Positions 10,286-56,574 of a stretch of 64,000 nucleotides of DNA are shown piece by piece. The DNA is from Indioceanicola profundi (GTDB lineage Bacteria; Pseudomonadota; Alphaproteobacteria; Azospirillales; Azospirillaceae). The stretch lies in contig NZ_CP030126.1 in the NCBI RefSeq assembly GCF_003568845.1, forward strand, positions 1,701,001 through 1,765,000, in the 5' to 3' direction. The position numbers and the translations under genes were made by a program. Within the stretch, counting starts at the first letter, position 1, and each line of letters opens with the position of its first letter. The notes beneath the pieces are model-generated. The model worked only from the letters and a program-made list of their open reading frames with translations, searched no databases and was not told where the DNA came from.

Positions 10286-10474
10286 GGGACCCTGGCAATT
10301 CTCTGAACCGTCCGCCCAGGCCGGGCGGATAGCGGGATGGAAGATCAGGGCTTGTACCACAGGCCGTCGCGCAAAGCACACCCGTCCCGCGGGGCATTTT
10401 CATGGGCGAAGAATGCAGGACGTACAGCCCCGCCATGCGGGCCTTAGGGCTTGGGCCTGGAGCCGCGGTCAGCC

Positions 10475-11239: not shown

Positions 11240-12399
11240 GCCCGCTCCGTCCCGCCGATCCAGCCGCCGCCCAGCACCCGGCCGCCCTGGTAGAATACCG
11301 CGGCCTGCCCCGGCGCGATACCGTACTGCGGCTCATCCAGCCGCACCACCGCCCCGCCCTGCCCGTCCAGGGTGACGGTGGCCGCCGCCGCCCGCTGGGC
11401 GGACCGCAGCTTGACCTCGCAGGTTACGGCCCCGCCAGCCAGTTCGGCGGCCAGCCAGTTGACCTCCTTGACCCGCACCATGTCGCGGGCCAGCGCCTCG
11501 CGCGGGCCGACGACAACCTGCTTCGCCGCCGGATCGACCTTCACGACATAGAGCGGTTCCAGCTCCTCCCCGTCCGGTCCCTTGCGACCGCCGATGCCGA
11601 GGCCCTTGCGCTGGCCGATGGTGTATTTGATCGTGCCCTCGTGCCGGCCCAGAACCCTTCCGTCCACATGGACGATGTCGCCCGGCTCCAGGCTGCCCGG
11701 CCGAAGCTTTTCGACGACGGAGGCGTAGTTGCCGGTGGGCACGAAGCAGATATCCTGGCTGTCCGGCTTGTCCGCGACGGGCAGGCCCAGCCGCTCGGCG
11801 ATGGCACGGGTCTCCGTCTTGGGCAGATGCCCCAGGGGGAAGCGCAGGAAGTCGAGCTGCGCCGGCGTGGTGGCGAACAGGAAATAGCTCTGGTCGCGGC
11901 TCGGGTCCTCGCCCCTGTGCAGCTCCGCCCCCGCCGGCCCCATGATGCGCTGGGCATAATGGCCGGTGGCCAGGCAGTCGGCTCCAAGGTCCTGCGCCTG
12001 CTCCAGCAGGTCGCGGAACTTGACGCGCTGGTTGCAGCGCACGCAGGGGATCGGCGTCTCGCCCCGCAGATAGCTGTCGGCGAAATCGTCGATCACCGCC
12101 TGACCGAAGCGGCTCTCGTAATCCAGCACGTAATGGGGAAATTCCAGCGCGTCGGCCACGCGGCGGGCGTCATAGATGTCCTGGCCGGCGCAGCACGCCC
12201 CCTTCTTGCCCACGGCCATGCCGTGGTCATAGAGCTGGAGCGTGATCCCCACCACGTCGTAGCCCTGCTGCTTCAGCATGGCGGCGGCCACGGAGGAGTC
12301 GACGCCGCCCGACATGGCGACCACCACGCGGGTGTCGCTCGGCGCCTTGTCGATGCCCAGGCTGTTCAGCCCGGCGATGGGGGGAAGAACTGTGTCCAT
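11236..12399 (-). CDS. mnmA: tRNA-specific 2-thiouridylase MnmA
   Basis: Thiolates the wobble U34 of tRNAs for Lys, Glu and Gln. The 387 residues show the PP-loop [18 protein letters not shown], the first catalytic cysteine in [14 protein letters not shown], the second in [14 protein letters not shown], and the barrel domain [17 protein letters not shown]. The ATG at 12399 gives a ~20-residue leader before the PP-loop; upstream readings have no support. It is the first gene of a two-gene unit with fabI. Confidence 0.96.
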
Positions 12400-48697: not shown

Positions 48698-49014
48698 CTC
48701 CGATGTTCTCCTCGTGCTCAGCCTGCCCTGCCGTCGGACCTGAAGCTCTGGACGGCCCTTACCCGACTTGGCGGTATCTTTAGTATGGTTTATGCGCGCG
48801 CTCGACTTTGGGTGCAATCCTCCGGGGTTCTCATTAGCCCTAGCTTATCGTCTTGGGCCTTGTATCCAGTCGGTTGAGACTTGAACCCTGTCGTCACTTT
48901 CGCATAGCAGTACCCCTTAATGTAACTACATTTATGTAGGCACATAAGCTTTTCGGGGTGACGCAACGGCAGGAGTGCCCGTGCCGGGGCGTCGGCAGGC
49001 AACAGGAGGGTAAA
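48698..49014. promoter_or_regulatory. Divergent promoter region with a 14-bp palindrome
   Basis: About 320 bases between the chemotaxis receptor (minus) and a small secreted-protein gene (plus). An exact palindrome CTACATTTATGTAG lies at 48926-48939 in an AT-rich stretch, a likely site for a dimeric regulator. No other gene is supported here. Confidence 0.5.
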
Positions 49015-49329
49015 ATGAGAAAGCTGACCGCACTGGCCGTTCTGGCCCTGGCCCTTGGCATTCCGACAGCATCGCAGGCCGACTGCGTCCTCAGCGCGCC
49101 CCCGGTTATTCCGGACGGCGCCACCGCTCCCGAGGCGGACATGGTTGCAGCGCAGCAGGCGCTCCGGACCTACGTGACGGAGACCCAGGAATATCTCGCC
49201 TGCCTGGAGAATGAGAATCGCGGCCGCGCTGGCCGTGACTGGACGCGCGACTATAACGAGGCGTCGTCGCAGATGGAAAAGCTCGCCAGCGACTTCAATA
49301 AGCAACTGCGCGCCTTCAAGTCCCGCTGA
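49015..49329 (+). CDS. Small secreted protein of unknown function
   Basis: 104 residues with a clear signal peptide (KLTALAVLALALGIPTASQADC) and a polar, helix-prone mature part (ALRTYVTETQEYLACLENEN, then charged). Two cysteines (after the signal and near residue 60) could pair. The ribosome site AGGAGGG is excellent. I recognise no domain. A terminator follows immediately. Confidence 0.8.
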   Translation: MRKLTALAVLALALGIPTASQADCVLSAPPVIPDGATAPEADMVAAQQALRTYVTETQEYLACLENENRGRAGRDWTRDYNEASSQMEKLASDFNKQLRAFKSR

Positions 49330-49398: not shown

Positions 49399-50670
49399 CT
49401 ATTCGGCGGCGGGCGCGTCCAGGGGCACGGCCTCTACCGACGGAATGGGCGGCGGCGTGGTGATGGGCGGAAGCTCAATTCCAGACAGATCGCCTCCTGC
49501 CTTGCGGGGCCTCGCCTGCTGCACCTCCAGATGACGGGCGACCAGATTCGGAAGCTCCGCCTCGTCCCATCGTTCGACCTCGGCGCCCAGGCGCAAAATC
49601 ACCAGATCGGCCCCGCGCGCCACATAGATCCGCTGCCCCCCATCGCCTGTCAGGAACACCGTATCGGGCTCCCGGAAGGCGGCGCTGGCCTGCAACGGCC
49701 CCTTGGGATCGAATGGCCATGCCAGGCGGACGCGGGTTCCGTCGTTCCTGGACCACGGCGTGGGCCGCTGCACATCGTCCACCCAAGGAGTGGACACGAG
49801 CGGCTGCCCCGCGACCGCTCCCCCTTCCAGAAGCAGAAGACCGATACGCAACCAATCGCGCGGAGTTGCTGCGAAGCAGCAGGTCAGCACAGGAGTGCCG
49901 TCCGCCCCCAGTCGCATCTCCGCCGTGCGCGCTCCCAGCGGCTGCCACAGCCGCTCCGACAGATAGGTCGGAAGAGGTTGACCCGCGGCACGGGCCAGGA
50001 CCAGTCCCAGAACCTGCATTTCCATGAGGTTTGGTGCGAACCGGGTCTCCGGCGCGGCCGCCAGCGGCGCTGACAGGGTCCGGGCCAAAGTATCGTCCAT
50101 GACCGGTTCGCCGGCAGGCAGATCCAGCCCGCTGGTGCCCTGCAGGAGCTGGCGCAGGGTAATCCGGCCCCGCGGGTCGTCCTTCCATTCCCCGATCCAA
50201 CGGACCACCGGGTCCTCGAGCGAGGGAATGTATCCATCACGCACGGCCTGTCCGGCCAGCAACGTCAGAAGCCCGGCCTGCAGCCCGCGCCCGTCCAGCC
50301 GGTCGAAAGGCTGAGTCGCTGCCCCGTAGAACTCCAGCTGCAACGCCCCGCCCTGCCAGATCAGCAGCGCCTCCGTCCCGGTGCGACGGGCGAAATCCAG
50401 CACCAGCCGTTCCCCTTCTGCGGTGAGGACCGCGCTTTCGGGAGCGGCGACGGGCATGATGCGTCCGGCGGTCCCGGGCACCTCCACTGTCGCCGGCCCG
50501 GCGGGCGCTGGCGGCGGAGCGATCGGCTCAGGCTCGGTCAGGTCGATGCGGACCGGCTGGCCGGATACGGGCTCCGGGGCTGTTCCAGGCTCCGTACGCA
50601 GCCAGAGGATCAGGCCAGCAGCGCTCAACAGCACGGCGACTCCGAATGCGGCAGGCAGGAAGCGCCTCAT
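49399..50670 (-). CDS. Beta-lactamase-fold protein lacking the catalytic Ser-x-x-Lys
   Basis: 423 residues of the serine beta-lactamase/class C family (PF00144). A membrane anchor (FGVAVLLSAAGLILWL) is followed by a Pro-rich linker. The fold is recognisable at ALLIWQGGALQLEFYG, PSLEDPVVRWIGEWKDDPRGRI (given as PSLEDPVVRW and ITLRQLLQGTSGLD), and ATPRDWLRIGLLLLEGG. Where the family has Ser-x-x-Lys, this protein reads RLDGRGLQAGLL. The Tyr-x-Asn box is also replaced (FAPNLMEM). It is therefore probably inactive, perhaps a binding or scaffold protein in the periplasm. Confidence 0.8.
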   Translation of the reverse strand: MRRFLPAAFGVAVLLSAAGLILWLRTEPGTAPEPVSGQPVRIDLTEPEPIAPPPAPAGPATVEVPGTAGRIMPVAAPESAVLTAEGERLVLDFARRTGTEALLIWQGGALQLEFYGAATQPFDRLDGRGLQAGLLTLLAGQAVRDGYIPSLEDPVVRWIGEWKDDPRGRITLRQLLQGTSGLDLPAGEPVMDDTLARTLSAPLAAAPETRFAPNLMEMQVLGLVLARAAGQPLPTYLSERLWQPLGARTAEMRLGADGTPVLTCCFAATPRDWLRIGLLLLEGGAVAGQPLVSTPWVDDVQRPTPWSRNDGTRVRLAWPFDPKGPLQASAAFREPDTVFLTGDGGQRIYVARGADLVILRLGAEVERWDEAELPNLVARHLEVQQARPRKAGGDLSGIELPPITTPPPIPSVEAVPLDAPAAE

Positions 50671-52101: not shown

Positions 52102-53601
52102 ATGATGGACGGCGGCATCTCGCCCAAGTCCGCCCAGACGGAAGGGGCGGCAGCCGGCAAGGGACGCTTGACGATTGTGGGCTCCGGCATCAAGGCGGTC
52201 GCCCATTTCACCCAGGAAACGGTCGCGCACATCCGTGACGCCGACGTTGTTTTCTACAAGGTGATTGATGGTGCGTCCGCCGCGTTCATCCGTGACCTGA
52301 ACCCGAATGCCATAGACCTGTCCCAATATTATGGCGACGACAAGCGCCGACGCATCACCTACATCCAGATGGCCGAGGTCATGCTGCGGGAGGTGCGCGC
52401 CGGCAGGACCGTCGTTGGCGTGTTCTACGGTCATCCCGGGTTCTTCGTCGACCCGGCGCGGCGCGCGCTGGCGGTGGCGGCAAAGGAAGGCTATCCGACC
52501 GAGATGCTCGCCGGGGTGTCCTCGACCGACACGCTGTTCGCCGACCTTCGGATCGATCCTGCCCAGAGCGGGCTTCAGATGCTGGAGGCCACGGACCTGC
52601 TGCTCCGCAACCGGCCGCTCGTTACCTCCGGCCATGTGGTGATCCTGCAAGTCGGGTCGGTGGGCGATGCCGCCTACAACTTCGCGCACGGCTTCCGCAA
52701 CAACAAGCGGGCTATCCTGTTCGAGCGGCTGATCGAGACTTACGGCCCCGACCATGTCACCGTGCTTTATCTCGCGGCCTCCCTGCCCGGAGTAGCTCCG
52801 CAGCTCATCCGACGTCGGCTCAGCGCCTATCGCGATCCAGCCGTCCTGGCGTCGGTCCATCCGGCCAGCACCTTGTATATTCCGCCGGGAACCGTCCTGG
52901 ATACAGATCCGACCATGGCCGAGAAGCTCGGCGCGCAGTGGGTGCTGAATCCCGCCGCCGCCCGCCGCGCGCCGATCTCCGAGTACGGCCCGCTTGAGGC
53001 GGAGGCGGTGCAAGCCCTGGCGCAGCATGCGCGGTCTCCCCACTACAAGGCTCATCTGGCTTCGCCGGCATTGCTGAACGTCATCACGAAGCTGGCCCTG
53101 GACCCCGCGGCAAGCCGGGCGTTCGAGGATGCGCCGGAGCAATTCCTGGAGAATTTCCCCTATCTGACGGATGCGGAACGCAAGGCACTTCTGTCCCGCA
53201 ATGTCTCGCGGCTGGTGTCAGCCATGGTGGTGCCGAACCGCGGGGCTGCCTCGCCCGGCAATCCTCCGCCATCGGATTCCGACGTGTCGATGACGGAGGA
53301 GGATGCTCCGGAGGGCATGCCTCCAAGCGATACCGATCTGAACGTCACTGAGAACGTGCCCCCCAGCAATACCGATCTGCACATCACCGAAAATGTGCCG
53401 TCGAGCGATACGGACCTGAACGTCACCGAGAACGTGCCGCCCAGCGACACCGATCTGAGCGTTACCGAGGATGCACCGTCCAGCGATACCGACCTCAGCG
53501 TTACCGAGGATATTCCGATGAGCAATACTGACTTGCACATCACCGAAAATGTGCCGCCGAGCGATTCTGATGTCAGTGTCGCGGACGAGGACCAGCGCTG
53601 A
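52102..53601 (+). CDS. Borosin-type peptide alpha-N-methyltransferase fused to a repetitive core
   Basis: 499-residue protein. Residues ~21-285 form a SAM-dependent tetrapyrrole-methylase fold with the borosin signature: GRLTIVGSGIKAVAHFTQET; LSQYYGDDKRRRITYIQMAE (the tyrosines and arginines equivalent to the catalytic set of fungal OphMA); GVFYGHPGFFVDPARRAL; MLAGVSSTDTLFADLRIDP; ASTLYIPPGTVLDTDPTMAE. To my memory OphMA has nearly the same stretches. Residues ~315-370 (LNVITKLALDPAASRAFEDA ... FLENFPYLTDAERKALL) resemble a borosin-binding/leader helical domain. Residues 389-499 hold eight acidic repeats that I take as fused core units. If so, the enzyme would N-methylate its own tail. The repeats could instead be a structural tail. 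No protease or exporter gene is adjacent. Confidence 0.87.
   Translation: MMDGGISPKSAQTEGAAAGKGRLTIVGSGIKAVAHFTQETVAHIRDADVVFYKVIDGASAAFIRDLNPNAIDLSQYYGDDKRRRITYIQMAEVMLREVRAGRTVVGVFYGHPGFFVDPARRALAVAAKEGYPTEMLAGVSSTDTLFADLRIDPAQSGLQMLEATDLLLRNRPLVTSGHVVILQVGSVGDAAYNFAHGFRNNKRAILFERLIETYGPDHVTVLYLAASLPGVAPQLIRRRLSAYRDPAVLASVHPASTLYIPPGTVLDTDPTMAEKLGAQWVLNPAAARRAPISEYGPLEAEAVQALAQHARSPHYKAHLASPALLNVITKLALDPAASRAFEDAPEQFLENFPYLTDAERKALLSRNVSRLVSAMVVPNRGAASPGNPPPSDSDVSMTEEDAPEGMPPSDTDLNVTENVPPSNTDLHITENVPSSDTDLNVTENVPPSDTDLSVTEDAPSSDTDLSVTEDIPMSNTDLHITENVPPSDSDVSVADEDQR
53266..53598 (+). repeat. Coding tandem repeat: eight PxS[DN][ST]D[LV] units, mostly 39 bp
   Basis: Units begin at residues 389, 407, 420, 433, 446, 459, 472 and 485 of the borosin-type protein. 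From residue 407 to 484 the period is exactly 13 residues (39 bp, 53320-53553), with consensus PPSDTDLNVTENV. Variants are NTDLHITENV (third and seventh units) and DTDLSVTED (fifth and sixth). The first and last units share DSDVS. Third-position differences between units keep the amino acids, which argues for selection on the peptide. It is not a CRISPR array: there are no spacers and the frame stays open. Confidence 0.93.
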
Positions 53602-53655: not shown

Positions 53656-56574
53656 ATGAAAGCTGAACTGCCGCCTTGGATGCCGATGATCGACTCCCAC
53701 GGGCTCTCGGACCGGGTTGACGCCCTGAATGAGCTGCTTTCGCAGCCATCGGGTCCGGATTCCCGCGCCCGGGTGCTCGTGGAACTGGCTTGGTATCTGA
53801 GGCAGCGCAATACGCGTCGGGCGGTCGAACTGGCCGATGCGGCAGAGCAACTCCTGCCGTTCCTCAACGGGGCAGAGGCGGGTTCCGCCTCTGCCCGGCT
53901 CCGGCTGGTCCGGGGAGAGGCGTTCCGCCTCTTCGCCGACCTGGACAGGTCCCGCGACCTCGTTCTCGAGGCGATGGAGAACTTCCAGGCGGCAGGCGAC
54001 CGGGTCGGCGAAGGGGATGCCCTCTCCTGCGAGGCGGAGCGGCTCTTCTTCGGGGGCGATACGGGCGGCGCCCTTGCCTGTCTCCAGTCAGCACGCGCAC
54101 TGTTCCTGGATGCGGGCGACCTCGTCCGGGCGCAGTTCGTCGAGATCAGGTCTATTGACCTCCGTCTCGGGTCGGAGACCGCATCCGCGCGGGAATACTG
54201 GAACGGCATGGCGGCGCTCGGGGGTTTGCGCCATCCTGCCTCCCAGGCACTGGGCGCATTCGTCGAGGCCTTCCTTCAGAGGGACAGAAGCGATCTCCTC
54301 GCCGCTCTTGAGACCGCCAAGACTGGCCTCGGCCCCGCGGAGCAGGCGGGCATGGTCTGGCTGCAGATCGGTCTCATGAACCTGATCGGCAGCGTTCTTA
54401 CCAACATCAGCGACTATGCTTCCGCCATGGAGTGGAAGCAGCGAGCTTATGCAATCGCCCAAGCGACGGGCTGGCCCGAATCCAGAGGGGCTGCGCTCTC
54501 CTCACTGGCGCACACGCACAGCCGGATCGGCCACAAAGCGGAGGCCCGGGCGCTGTATCTGGATGCGCTGACCGAGTTGCAGAGGTTTTCCGGAACCCGC
54601 CGTTTTCAGGTCGCATGCGTGACCTATGGAAACACCTGCCTGGAAATGGGCGAGGCCGAGGAGGCTTCGAGTTGGTTTTCGCGGGCTCTGGAGAACGCGA
54701 CCCTCGGGAACCAGCAGGATGTCCAACTCCTTGCCCTCCTTGGCACCGCCCGCGCCTGCAATGCGCTGGGCAGGCTGGAGGAGGCGCGGGACAGGCTGGA
54801 TCAGGCGTTGGAAATTGCGCGCCGGCGCGACAACCGCCTGGAACAGGTCGTGGCGCTGCACGCGCTGGCCGGGACACGGCGGCGCCTCGCCGGGAGTCCT
54901 GTTGAAGGACATCGCGAGGCGATTGCACTGCTGGAAGAGGCCATGGCGGTCGGCCAGTCGATTCCGGGCTATGCGATGCGGCCGGATCTGCTCTCCGAAC
55001 TGGCTGCGGACTATGAGGCGGTGGGCGACTTCCAGCTTGCCCTTCAATATGAGCGCCTCGCTCGCAGCTCCTGGGAACGTACCTTCAACAAGGAAAGCGC
55101 TGACAGGCTGGCCGCCATGCAGGCCCGCTTCGAGACCTTGCGGGCGCGTGACGAGGCCGACCATATGAAGGCCCTCGCCAGGACGGAGACGGAGCGCGCG
55201 ATGGCGCTCGACCAGGCGAACCAGGCACTGGAACAGCTCGGACTCGCCGGCAAGGCGATCACGGCCAGCCTGGATGTCGACGCCATCCTCGTGACCCTGC
55301 GCGAACGGCTGGGCGTTCTGCTCGACCCGCCCTGCATGTTCATCGGTTTGCTGGACGAGGCGCGGCAAAGGATCGATATCCAGTTCCGGATTGAGGACGG
55401 CATGTCGCTGCCGCCCTATTCCATAGCCCTGTCCAACCCGGATTCCTATTCCGCCCGCTCCGTACGGGAGAACCGGGAACTTCTGGTGGAAAGGTCGTTG
55501 GGCGCGGGGGAGCGGGCGCATGTCCCCGGAACACGCCCGATGCTGAGCATGATCTACTGCCCCCTTGCCGTGGGCGGGCGTGTTCTGGGTGTTCTGTCGG
55601 TACAGCAGGACCGCCCGAACGCCTTCGGTCAGCGTGAGCACAGGATCGTCCGCAGTCTGGCAGCGTACGGCGCCATTGCCCTTGCCAATGCCCAGGCCTA
55701 CCGCTCGCTGGACGAGGCGCTGGCGACTCTCCAGGACGCCCAGGGACGGCTGGTGCAGCAGGAAAAGCTGGCCTCCCTGGGCCAGCTTGTGGCGGGGGTA
55801 GCGCATGAGGTGAACACGCCCATCGGCATCCTGCTCAGCCTCGCCTCCCACATGATGGAAGAGGTCGAGAGCATCAATGGCCGCTTGGCGCGGGCGCAGC
55901 TCCGCAAGTCCGACCTGCTTCAGCATCTGCGCACCGCGGAGGAAACCGCCTCGCTGATGCTGACCACCGCGAAGCGCGCCGCCAACCTGGTGAGCGCTTT
56001 CAAACAGGTGGCGGCGGACCGCACCAACGACGAGGCGCGGGAGGTGGAGCTGACCGACTACCTCCGCGAGGTAGCCGCGACCGTGCAGCCGTTGCTGCGT
56101 CCGCGCGGGATCGCCCTGTCGGTGGAGGGGGAGCCGGGCCTGCGCCTGACCACCTACCCTGGCCTGTTGGCTCAGGTCGTGACGAATCTGGTGGAGAACG
56201 CCGTCAGCCATGCCTTCGACGGGATCGCGTCCCCTGCCCTGACCATAGCCGTGCGGCCCACCCCTGTGATGGGAGAGCAGGGCGAGGAGATGTTGGAACT
56301 CCAGGTGGCCGACAATGGCGTCGGCATGACCGCCGCGGTCCGCGCCAAGGCGTTCGAGCCGTTCTTCACCACCCGGCGCAGCAGCGGCGGCACCGGCCTG
56401 GGTCTTCATGTCGTCCACAATGTGGTGACCGGCCCGTTGCAGGGCACGGTGGATCTGGCGAGTACGCCCGGCAAGGGCTGCCGCTTCACCCTGCGCCTGC
56501 CGGTCCGGCTCCGCGCCGTACAACTCGGCGATCTCACCACTGACCCCGCCCTTGCCATTGCACTGGGACAGTAG
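53656..56574 (+). CDS. Soluble sensor histidine kinase with TPR and GAF domains
   Basis: 972 residues without a membrane segment. The N-terminal half (to about 490) is TPR-like helical repeats (for example RALYLDALTELQRF, EEASSWFSRALENA and EEARDRLDQALEIARRR). A coiled coil (~500-545) and a GAF domain (~550-690; MIYCPLAVGGRVLGVLSVQQ) follow. The kinase core has the H-box GVAHEVNTPIG with the phosphorylated His at about residue 717, the N-box NLVENAVSHAF near 845, and glycine boxes ADNGVGM and GGTGLGLHVV. No receiver domain or response regulator is nearby. It lies 54 bp after the borosin-type gene on the same strand, so it may sense or control that product. Confidence 0.9.
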   Translation: MKAELPPWMPMIDSHGLSDRVDALNELLSQPSGPDSRARVLVELAWYLRQRNTRRAVELADAAEQLLPFLNGAEAGSASARLRLVRGEAFRLFADLDRSRDLVLEAMENFQAAGDRVGEGDALSCEAERLFFGGDTGGALACLQSARALFLDAGDLVRAQFVEIRSIDLRLGSETASAREYWNGMAALGGLRHPASQALGAFVEAFLQRDRSDLLAALETAKTGLGPAEQAGMVWLQIGLMNLIGSVLTNISDYASAMEWKQRAYAIAQATGWPESRGAALSSLAHTHSRIGHKAEARALYLDALTELQRFSGTRRFQVACVTYGNTCLEMGEAEEASSWFSRALENATLGNQQDVQLLALLGTARACNALGRLEEARDRLDQALEIARRRDNRLEQVVALHALAGTRRRLAGSPVEGHREAIALLEEAMAVGQSIPGYAMRPDLLSELAADYEAVGDFQLALQYERLARSSWERTFNKESADRLAAMQARFETLRARDEADHMKALARTETERAMALDQANQALEQLGLAGKAITASLDVDAILVTLRERLGVLLDPPCMFIGLLDEARQRIDIQFRIEDGMSLPPYSIALSNPDSYSARSVRENRELLVERSLGAGERAHVPGTRPMLSMIYCPLAVGGRVLGVLSVQQDRPNAFGQREHRIVRSLAAYGAIALANAQAYRSLDEALATLQDAQGRLVQQEKLASLGQLVAGVAHEVNTPIGILLSLASHMMEEVESINGRLARAQLRKSDLLQHLRTAEETASLMLTTAKRAANLVSAFKQVAADRTNDEAREVELTDYLREVAATVQPLLRPRGIALSVEGEPGLRLTTYPGLLAQVVTNLVENAVSHAFDGIASPALTIAVRPTPVMGEQGEEMLELQVADNGVGMTAAVRAKAFEPFFTTRRSSGGTGLGLHVVHNVVTGPLQGTVDLASTPGKGCRFTLRLPVRLRAVQLGDLTTDPALAIALGQ

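What the first reader, a model, noticed from the sequence alone, without database searches (positions are those of the whole stretch)
52102..53601. A borosin-type methyltransferase fused to its own multi-copy core in an alphaproteobacterium
Seen: the stretches IVGSGI, LSQYYGDDKRRR, VFYGHPGFFVDPARRA, MLAGVSSTDTLFADL and STLYIPP occur in the order found in peptide-backbone alpha-N-methyltransferases, and a repetitive tail follows in the same frame. Known: in fungi such enzymes (OphMA) methylate their own C-terminal core, whereas in bacteria, as far as I recall, the enzyme and precursor are usually separate (SonM/SonA). Inference: this is a fused bacterial borosin with a repeated acidic core, so one protein could yield several methylated peptides.
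Basis: partly seen in the sequence, partly recalled or inferred. Interest (0 to 1): 0.95.

Follow-up and report, generated by a model that had tools for sequence, protein, structure and literature searches.

The report
Borosin peptide with dedicated receptor kinase
This bacterial gene encodes an enzyme of a peptide-methylating kind fused to eight related copies of a short acidic peptide that it likely methylates itself, and the sensor-kinase gene directly after it, present after all 18 such genes found in its family, likely recognises that peptide as a private chemical signal.

Summary
Window 52102-53601 (+) encodes a 499-aa fused borosin: an OphMA-type backbone N-methyltransferase with clasp, followed in frame by eight units of mostly 13 aa. 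A fused bacterial borosin is not new in itself: KchMA was shown to methylate its own tail (PMC11395268). In all 18 loci of this subfamily found in 82 family genomes, the next gene on the same strand is a GAF-histidine kinase. Core units differ between lineages, and the kinase's TPR sensor is hypervariable along with them: two species with 97% identical kinase domains share 48% of the TPR, while a TPR-kinase paralogue elsewhere in their genomes shares 98%. Core similarity predicts TPR identity beyond kinase identity (partial r 0.90, p 0.001, 8 genomes). TPR and kinase trees conflict, and the cores follow the TPR. One lineage lacks both repeats and working kinase motifs. I infer an agr-like ligand-receptor cassette whose ligand is a borosin core. 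Methylation, release and binding are untested; physical linkage could explain part of the co-variation.

The parts
52102..53601 (+). fused borosin precursor-methyltransferase, 499 aa
52162..52926 (+). alpha-N-methyltransferase domain (residues 21-275); OphMA Y66, R72, Y76, Y98, S129, Q172 correspond to Y77, R83, Y87, Y109, S140, Q183; OphMA Y63 is S74
52927..53226 (+). clasp-like helical domain (residues 276-375), aligns with the part of OphMA after its methyltransferase domain
53227..53271 (+). linker (residues 376-390)
53272..53598 (+). predicted multi-copy core: units beginning at residues 391, 409, 422, 435, 448, 461, 474, 487; predicted disordered (pLDDT under 50 over nearly all of 389-499)
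53656..56574 (+). downstream TPR-GAF histidine kinase, 972 aa, 54 bases after the borosin stop; predicted cognate receptor
53656..55095 (+). TPR sensor of the kinase (residues 1-480); the matching domain is hypervariable between species among the relatives
55258..55695 (+). GAF domain of the kinase (residues 535-680)
55723..56511 (+). dimerisation and ATPase domains (residues 690-952) with His717 in the H-box LVAGVAHEVNTP and the N, G1 and G2 boxes present

Best explanation
The 499-aa protein has the build of a fused borosin and is predicted to methylate the backbone of its own eight-unit core, and the histidine kinase encoded directly after it likely acts as the receptor for that core peptide, so that the two would form a linked ligand-receptor cassette working like the staphylococcal agr locus. 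Shown by sequence: the OphMA-type enzyme with clasp and catalytic residues, the repeat tail in cis, the kinase after all 18 genes of this subfamily found in 82 family genomes, and the joint variation of core and sensor domain between conserved enzyme and kinase ends. Inferred: an OphMA-like dimer methylates hydrophobic residues of each unit (for example Leu413 and Val415, spaced as SonA Leu63 and Ile65), a protease releases several like peptides per precursor, the peptide binds the TPR groove (or, in the Nitrospirillum-like group, a predicted outward-facing propeller), and the kinase passes the signal to a response regulator not yet identified.
For: Enzyme. Core: (units differ between lineages and are alike within a protein; few K, R, F, W, Y). 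Kinase after the borosin gene in 18 of 18 loci: 14 on one contig and 4 where the contig ends inside the borosin gene (three in the tail, G072 already in the methyltransferase part) and another contig of the genome opens with a repeat tail end plus the kinase. Of 7 other borosin loci searched none has the kinase domain in the flank held; 5 of these cover the downstream side. The 11 borosin-adjacent TPR kinases form one side of a branch (94/97) against 12 other TPR kinases of the family. Mean divergence over 28 pairs: TPR 0.52, GAF 0.24, kinase 0.23 against 0.21, 0.18, 0.16 in the paralogue; boundary near residues 480-520; dS for G067/G070 1.39 in TPR against 0.25 in GAF-kinase. Core predicts TPR: partial Mantel r 0.87-0.90, p 0.001, 8 genomes; 0.86-0.89, p 0.0002 or less, 9 genomes. 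The TPR tree joins G069+G070 (100/100) and rejects G067+G072+G070 (AU 1.2e-9); the GAF-kinase tree joins the latter (98/95) and rejects the former (AU 2.9e-28); the cores follow the TPR. In the Nitrospirillum-like group the one genome with a different core has propeller identity 0.56-0.57 to the other six, which share 0.74-0.98. G076 lacks both the repeats and the H-box His, with no HATPase_c match. The TPR model is confident and its PDB matches include LGN peptide complexes and Rap with its pheromone.
Against: Core and TPR are neighbours, so one recombination block carries both; linkage alone could make them co-vary without binding. Few independent contrasts: nine g11 genomes with about six or seven core types, most pairs having unlike cores, so the correlation rests largely on three like pairs (G067/G072, G071/G075, G069/G070). 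The tail of G072 is a 32-aa piece and those of G070, G073, G074 are incomplete. The AU groups were chosen after seeing identities. In the kinase tree the window and G076 rows are long branches that meet, which the program warns of. In the Nitrospirillum-like group G063 is also the most distant genome overall (methyltransferase 0.86-0.87), and G062 shares the common core with a propeller of only 0.74-0.76. No hydrophobic signal sequence by a hydropathy scan and no GG export motif after residue 276 of the window precursor; no other neighbour is shared by all groups, so no conserved protease, exporter or response regulator is at hand; the window's TPR kinase has only a borderline hydrophobic stretch inside its GAF domain, so ligand entry or intracellular sensing must be assumed. 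The sensor type differs between groups. G076 is one lineage, and its methyltransferase and TPR remain. TPR variation is not focused on the groove: by my helix assignment the inner A helices keep 0.46 and the outer B helices 0.39, the same order as in the paralogue (0.80, 0.69). AboMA modifies only uncharged residues (PMC11395268), so methylation of such acidic units is not assured.
Confidence: 0.58

Rival explanations
1. An ordinary fused borosin that makes an exported N-methylated peptide (antibiotic, metallophore or the like); the downstream kinase only regulates the operon in answer to some other stimulus.
For: Kinases often regulate neighbouring biosynthetic genes (general knowledge). Transport genes occur near some loci: a C39-peptidase ABC exporter and HlyD in L031/L032, MacB/FtsX permeases in L027-L030, L033 and L043, an SBP_bac_5 protein in six of the seven Nitrospirillum-like loci (one member of each gene cluster scanned).
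Against: Does not by itself explain why the sensor domain is hypervariable and changes together with the core while the paralogous kinases do not, nor the double lack in G076. The transport genes are not shared between the groups.
Confidence: 0.23
2. The tail is never released: the methylated repeat tail of the intact protein docks on the TPR domain, and its methylation state reports S-adenosylmethionine supply (or enzyme state) to the kinase.
For: TPR domains bind extended peptides of partner proteins (LGN complexes top the fold list); no protease or exporter is shared by all groups; the TPR kinase looks cytoplasmic; the two genes are 54 bases apart and overlap by 4 in L025.
Against: The Nitrospirillum-like loci keep the repeats but have a propeller sensor followed by a hydrophobic helix before the GAF domain, in five of the seven with an N-terminal hydrophobic stretch above the scan's threshold too, which points to sensing outside the cytoplasm. 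Species-private units are not needed for a SAM gauge.
Confidence: 0.12
3. Relaxed or neutral evolution plus linked recombination: the block between two conserved ends has been replaced by foreign alleles several times, with no functional tie between core and sensor.
For: For pairs with unlike cores dS in the TPR is above that of the kinase half, up to saturation, as expected after import of a divergent block; core and the front of the TPR lie in one block of about 1.3-1.5 kb.
Against: Units stay alike at the peptide level although third positions have diverged (13 of 13 tails); outside G076 the H-box is intact in the other ten of the eleven TPR kinases and the ATPase boxes are there in those shown; the kinase follows the gene in 18 of 18.
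Confidence: 0.07

Closest known systems
OphMA / dbOphMA / MroMA (fungal fused borosins)
   Same: Methyltransferase domain, clasp directly after it, core in cis at the C terminus; 37-43% identity in the listed structural matches
   Different: Bacterial; eight-unit acidic tail in place of one hydrophobic core (the fungal core type is recalled); kinase neighbour
KchMA (bacterial fused type III borosin, WP_084224105.1, PMC11395268)
   Same: Bacterial fused borosin; self-methylation shown there, some of it on Asp
   Different: KchMA's methylated stretch is at residues 742-796; here the tail follows the clasp at once in a 499-aa protein. The words kinase, signal and repeat do not occur in that paper's main text
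SonM/SonA (split borosin, PMC8429565)
   Same: Homologous methyltransferase (E 9e-40)
   Different: Enzyme and precursor are separate proteins there
Staphylococcal agr locus (PMC10482373)
   Same: Hypervariable block that spans the peptide and part of its receptor kinase
   Different: Unrelated proteins; AgrC senses through a membrane domain (PMC8534201); no AgrA-like regulator is conserved beside the genes here
RRNPP receptors such as Rap with its peptide (4gyo; the family name is recalled)
   Same: TPR domain, here proposed to bind a short peptide
   Different: Here the TPR is fused to GAF and a histidine kinase, in a Gram-negative, and the peptide gene is a borosin

Membership tests
borosin (fused) | methyltransferase domain homologous to OphM/SonM | tested here: met
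borosin (fused) | residues equivalent to OphMA Y66, R72, Y76, Y98, S129, Q172 | tested here: met
   kept in all 18 aligned rows except that L041 has T for S129; PDB titles confirm OphMA numbering for Y63, Y66, R72, Y76 and Y98; S129 and Q172 are mapped by a constant offset of 7 from KchMA S136 and Q179
borosin (fused) | residue equivalent to OphMA Y63 | tested here: not met
   Ser74; S, T or A also in 11 rows of this subfamily or near it, N in P0012, Y in L041, P0040 and three fungal rows. KchMA Y70A lost activity only moderately, so I do not treat it as defining
borosin (fused) | clasp domain followed by core peptide in the same chain | tested here: met
borosin (fused) | autocatalytic backbone alpha-N-methylation | not testable with these tools
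   needs mass spectrometry
type III borosin | core with alternating acidic and other residues; in KchMA a long region before the core | tested here: inconclusive
   acidic tail yes (23% D/E); no long region before it. The formal type definitions (Quijano 2019, Imani 2022) were not read; searches give summaries
agr-like peptide signalling | peptide gene linked to a histidine kinase gene | tested here: met
   18 of 18 loci
agr-like peptide signalling | peptide and sensor domain vary together between conserved flanks | tested here: met
agr-like peptide signalling | linked response regulator and maturation/export protein | tested here: not met
   no further neighbour is shared by all groups; only ten flanking genes of relatives and the window's four upstream neighbours were scanned by Pfam
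agr-like peptide signalling | peptide binds and activates the kinase | not testable with these tools
   needs biochemistry
RRNPP quorum sensing | TPR receptor for a short peptide | tested here: inconclusive
   TPR fold confident, Rap among the matches at rank 42, but TPR matches are generic

The most novel reading that the evidence does not exclude
A Gram-negative cell-to-cell signalling system in which the pheromone is a self-made, backbone N-methylated borosin released in many copies from one precursor-enzyme, and the receptor is a TPR (or propeller) histidine kinase encoded next to it; core and receptor form an exchangeable specificity cassette that gives each species a private signal, as agr groups do in staphylococci.
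Probability: 0.43. Interest if true: 0.95.

Novelty: new variant of a known kind. Interest (0 to 1): 0.82.

Why it matters
[quoted passage not shown] A receptor-like kinase that varies with the core gives a concrete function to test and a natural set of matched and mismatched pairs. If right, backbone N-methylated peptides would join the known bacterial peptide signals, the multi-copy core would parallel multi-copy pheromone precursors of yeasts (recalled), and the cassette would offer swappable peptide-receptor pairs.

Tried and rejected
Cobalamin- or siroheme-type methylase: rejected, the NCBIfam hits lie far under their cut-offs and borosin structures score about 75 orders of magnitude better than the one precorrin methylase listed. 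Chance tail: rejected. Assembly chimera: unlikely, since the pattern also holds between loci on unbroken contigs (L029 and L030). TPR variation focused on the groove: not found. Extension to other borosins: L041, L042, L077, L078, L079 have no such kinase domain within the flank held; L001 and L061 were searched too but do not cover the downstream side. The genome-contig scan gave one locus only. Wider surveys, the window's own genome counted: 4 of 385 class genomes and 15 of 398 phylum genomes have a match at 1e-20; of their loci outside the family only L061 and, as L077, that of G114 were looked at for the kinase. Two weak family hits, G033 and G045 (E 5e-4 and 8e-4, 30-32% over about 120-130 aa), were dropped as generic methylases. 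P0005 (Rhodocista pekingensis) also lacks repeats; its neighbours were not seen. Papers: nine searches. None of the listings shows a paper on borosins and histidine kinases; the one joint hit holds each term once and was not opened, nor were the five. Seen: PMC11395268 parts 1-3 of 5 and a word search; passages of PMC8429565, PMC11285071, PMC9233826, PMC10482373, PMC8534201. Quijano 2019, Imani 2022, Cho 2022 and the 2024 RODEO borosin paper were not opened; what I say of them is from the papers named or recall.

Full report
OBSERVATION. The ORF is at 52102-53601 (+), 499 aa. Residues 22-185 match TP_methylase. Against PDB sequences the best relatives are dbOphMA (5e-78, residues 18-363), OphA, MroMA (8e-66, residues 20-395) and SonM (9e-40, residues 21-277). 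An AlphaFold model is mostly confident over residues 21-375 and disordered after about 389; it matches dbOphMA (E 4e-39), OphA and MroMA. OphMA residues Y66, R72, Y76, Y98, S129 and Q172 are kept as Y77, R83, Y87, Y109, S140 and Q183; Y63 is Ser74. The tail has eight units: residues 391-408 (18 aa) and seven of 13 aa from 409 to 499, the last degenerate.

RELATIVES. A protein search gave 88 homologues, the query itself counted. In the window's family, 20 of 82 genomes match at E 0.001; two of them (G033, G045) are weak generic methylases and were dropped, leaving 18 genomes (also 18 of 82 at 1e-30): the window's, seven of seven in g10, nine of eleven in g11, one of one in g12. By equal contig lengths, g10 holds Nitrospirillum and g11 holds Niveispirillum. 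After the clasp, lineages have different tandem units: EQDAAELSSA (L025), AELNDA (L030), EQHETEQHEAEQHVT (L029), ATEEHDASEEHI (L031, L032), DVQDQNVSTE or close to it (L034-L039), EELNEHNDV (L040), and others; L026 (G076) has a 33-aa tail with no repeat. In 13 of 13 tails examined, the window's included, adjacent copies agree better at codon positions 1 and 2 than at position 3; in L029, L032 and L035 0.84-0.90 of like residues also share the codon, so recent duplication contributes there. The tails of the window and 17 repeat-bearing relatives, linkers included, hold 0.15-0.37 D/E and 0.00-0.07 K/R.

THE KINASE. A comparison of mechanically called genes around the loci showed one neighbour shared by all groups: a histidine kinase directly downstream on the same strand. 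It is there in the window and in 13 relatives on one contig. In the other four the contig ends inside the borosin gene: in the tail for G070, G073 and G074, already in the methyltransferase part for G072. For each of the four, another contig of the genome opens with a repeat tail end and goes on into the kinase. So 18 of 18, with the join inferred in four. Among the 14 on one contig, gaps run from an overlap of 38 (mechanical start) to 250 bases, 54 in the window. Eleven have the TPR-GAF-kinase layout (four scanned by Pfam; the rest by full-length alignment); seven (g10) have a Reg_prop propeller, Y_Y_Y, a hydrophobic helix, GAF and kinase (one scanned by Pfam; the rest by alignment). Two borosins of another subfamily in these genomes (L041, L042) and three elsewhere (L077; L078 from Azospirillum lipoferum 4B; L079 from Mycetohabitans) lack the kinase domain in the flank held. 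The two g11 genomes without a borosin, G065 and G068, showed no kinase of the borosin-adjacent group among the ten candidates scored per genome.

CO-VARIATION. Eight g11 genomes carry both the borosin-adjacent kinase and a TPR-kinase paralogue elsewhere. Over their 28 pairs the adjacent kinase diverges 0.52 in the TPR, 0.24 in GAF, 0.23 in the kinase; the paralogue 0.21, 0.18, 0.16. For G067/G070: methyltransferase 0.93, clasp 0.68, TPR 0.48, GAF 0.99, kinase 0.97, paralogue TPR 0.98. The boundary lies near residues 480-520. At DNA level homology between L030 and L029 stops at the clasp end and resumes inside the kinase gene near residue 241; between L030 and the two contigs of G070 it stops at 10362 and resumes at 11669; between L030 and L046, which share the AELNDA core, it runs unbroken from the tail end on. 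dS for G067/G070 is 1.39 in the TPR and 0.25 in GAF-kinase, against 0.28 and 0.31 in the paralogue; for like-core pairs it is 0.31 and 0.36 (G067/G072) and 0.78 and 0.58 (G071/G075). I read this as exchange of the block. Core k-mer similarity against TPR identity, given GAF-kinase identity: partial r 0.87-0.90, p 0.001 (8 genomes, k 3-5); 0.86-0.89, p 0.0002 or less (9 genomes); core against GAF-kinase given TPR: -0.02 to 0.26. Three like pairs carry most of this. The TPR tree puts G070 with G069 (both with EQH units); the GAF-kinase tree and the paralogue tree put it with G067 and G072; the TPR and GAF-kinase data each reject the other's grouping. These groups were picked after the identities were seen. 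In g10 the one genome with another core, G063, has propeller identity 0.56-0.57 to the other six, while Y_Y_Y, GAF and kinase stay at 0.83-0.92; the six, with like cores, are at 0.74-0.98 among themselves. G063 is also the most distant of the seven overall, so this is support of a weaker kind.

A DOUBLE LACK. In G076 the borosin has no repeats and the kinase has Arg for the H-box His, altered N, G1 and G2 boxes and no HATPase_c match at 0.01. This is one lineage.

HOW IT LIKELY WORKS. Shown: enzyme, tail in cis, constant kinase neighbour, joint variation. Inferred from OphMA (as described in PMC11395268): a head-to-tail dimer in which each methyltransferase acts on the other chain's tail. Inferred: release of like peptides, binding to the kinase's variable sensor, signalling. 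SonM methylates Leu63 and Ile65 of SonA (PMC11285071, passage); the window units carry the same spacing in DLNV, DLHI, DLSV, which is a prediction for mass spectrometry. The TPR model (mean pLDDT 88.6, residues 1-525) resembles LGN peptide complexes and, at rank 42, Rap with its pheromone; TPR matches are generic and count for little.

KNOWN AND NEW. Fused bacterial borosins are known: KchMA (PMC11395268). That paper speaks of types 0 to X and adds XI; the window protein has a short OphMA-like layout with a repeated acidic tail, and I could not assign it to a type from what I read. The pairing with a kinase and the cassette-like co-variation did not show in the listings of my searches, which cover open-licence papers only. 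The closest known pattern is the hypervariable region of agr (PMC10482373, passages). I therefore rate the borosin as a new member, and the borosin-kinase cassette as a new variant of peptide signalling, pending one binding or phosphorylation experiment.

Noticed in passing
L041:13166-16207 and L042:7499-10396: A second borosin subfamily (1013 and 965 aa, about 650 aa after the clasp, D/N-rich stretch) in two of the same genomes, without the kinase.
   Followed up: partly
proteins P0018, P0028, P0029, P0033, P0034: Borosin-type methyltransferases with a 2-oxoglutarate/iron oxygenase domain (PF13640) before them (four proteins) or with PF19193 (P0034), by the precomputed Pfam accessions and the alignment positions.
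   Followed up: no
plasmid NZ_CP101526.1 635722-636792 (hit H1): A borosin-type match in a Burkholderia arboris record with no gene listed under it; that gene table is incomplete.
   Followed up: no
L078 (Azospirillum lipoferum 4B plasmid AZO_p2): A borosin-type gene (WP_014188741.1) annotated only as SAM-dependent methyltransferase, followed by a gene named streptomycin biosynthesis enzyme StrG.
   Followed up: partly
L027, L028, L033, L043: Draft contigs end inside the borosin gene, three of the four in the repeat tail, so these genes are truncated in the assemblies.
   Followed up: yes
L058 (second TPR kinase of the window's own genome): The window's genome has another TPR-GAF kinase; its match shows one in-frame TGA as scored.
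   Followed up: no
window 49399-50670 (-) and 48958-49329 (+): A serine hydrolase of the beta-lactamase family (PF00144) and a small protein near the borosin gene have homologues near the one in L026 but not in the other loci compared (gene clusters 18 and 17).
   Followed up: no
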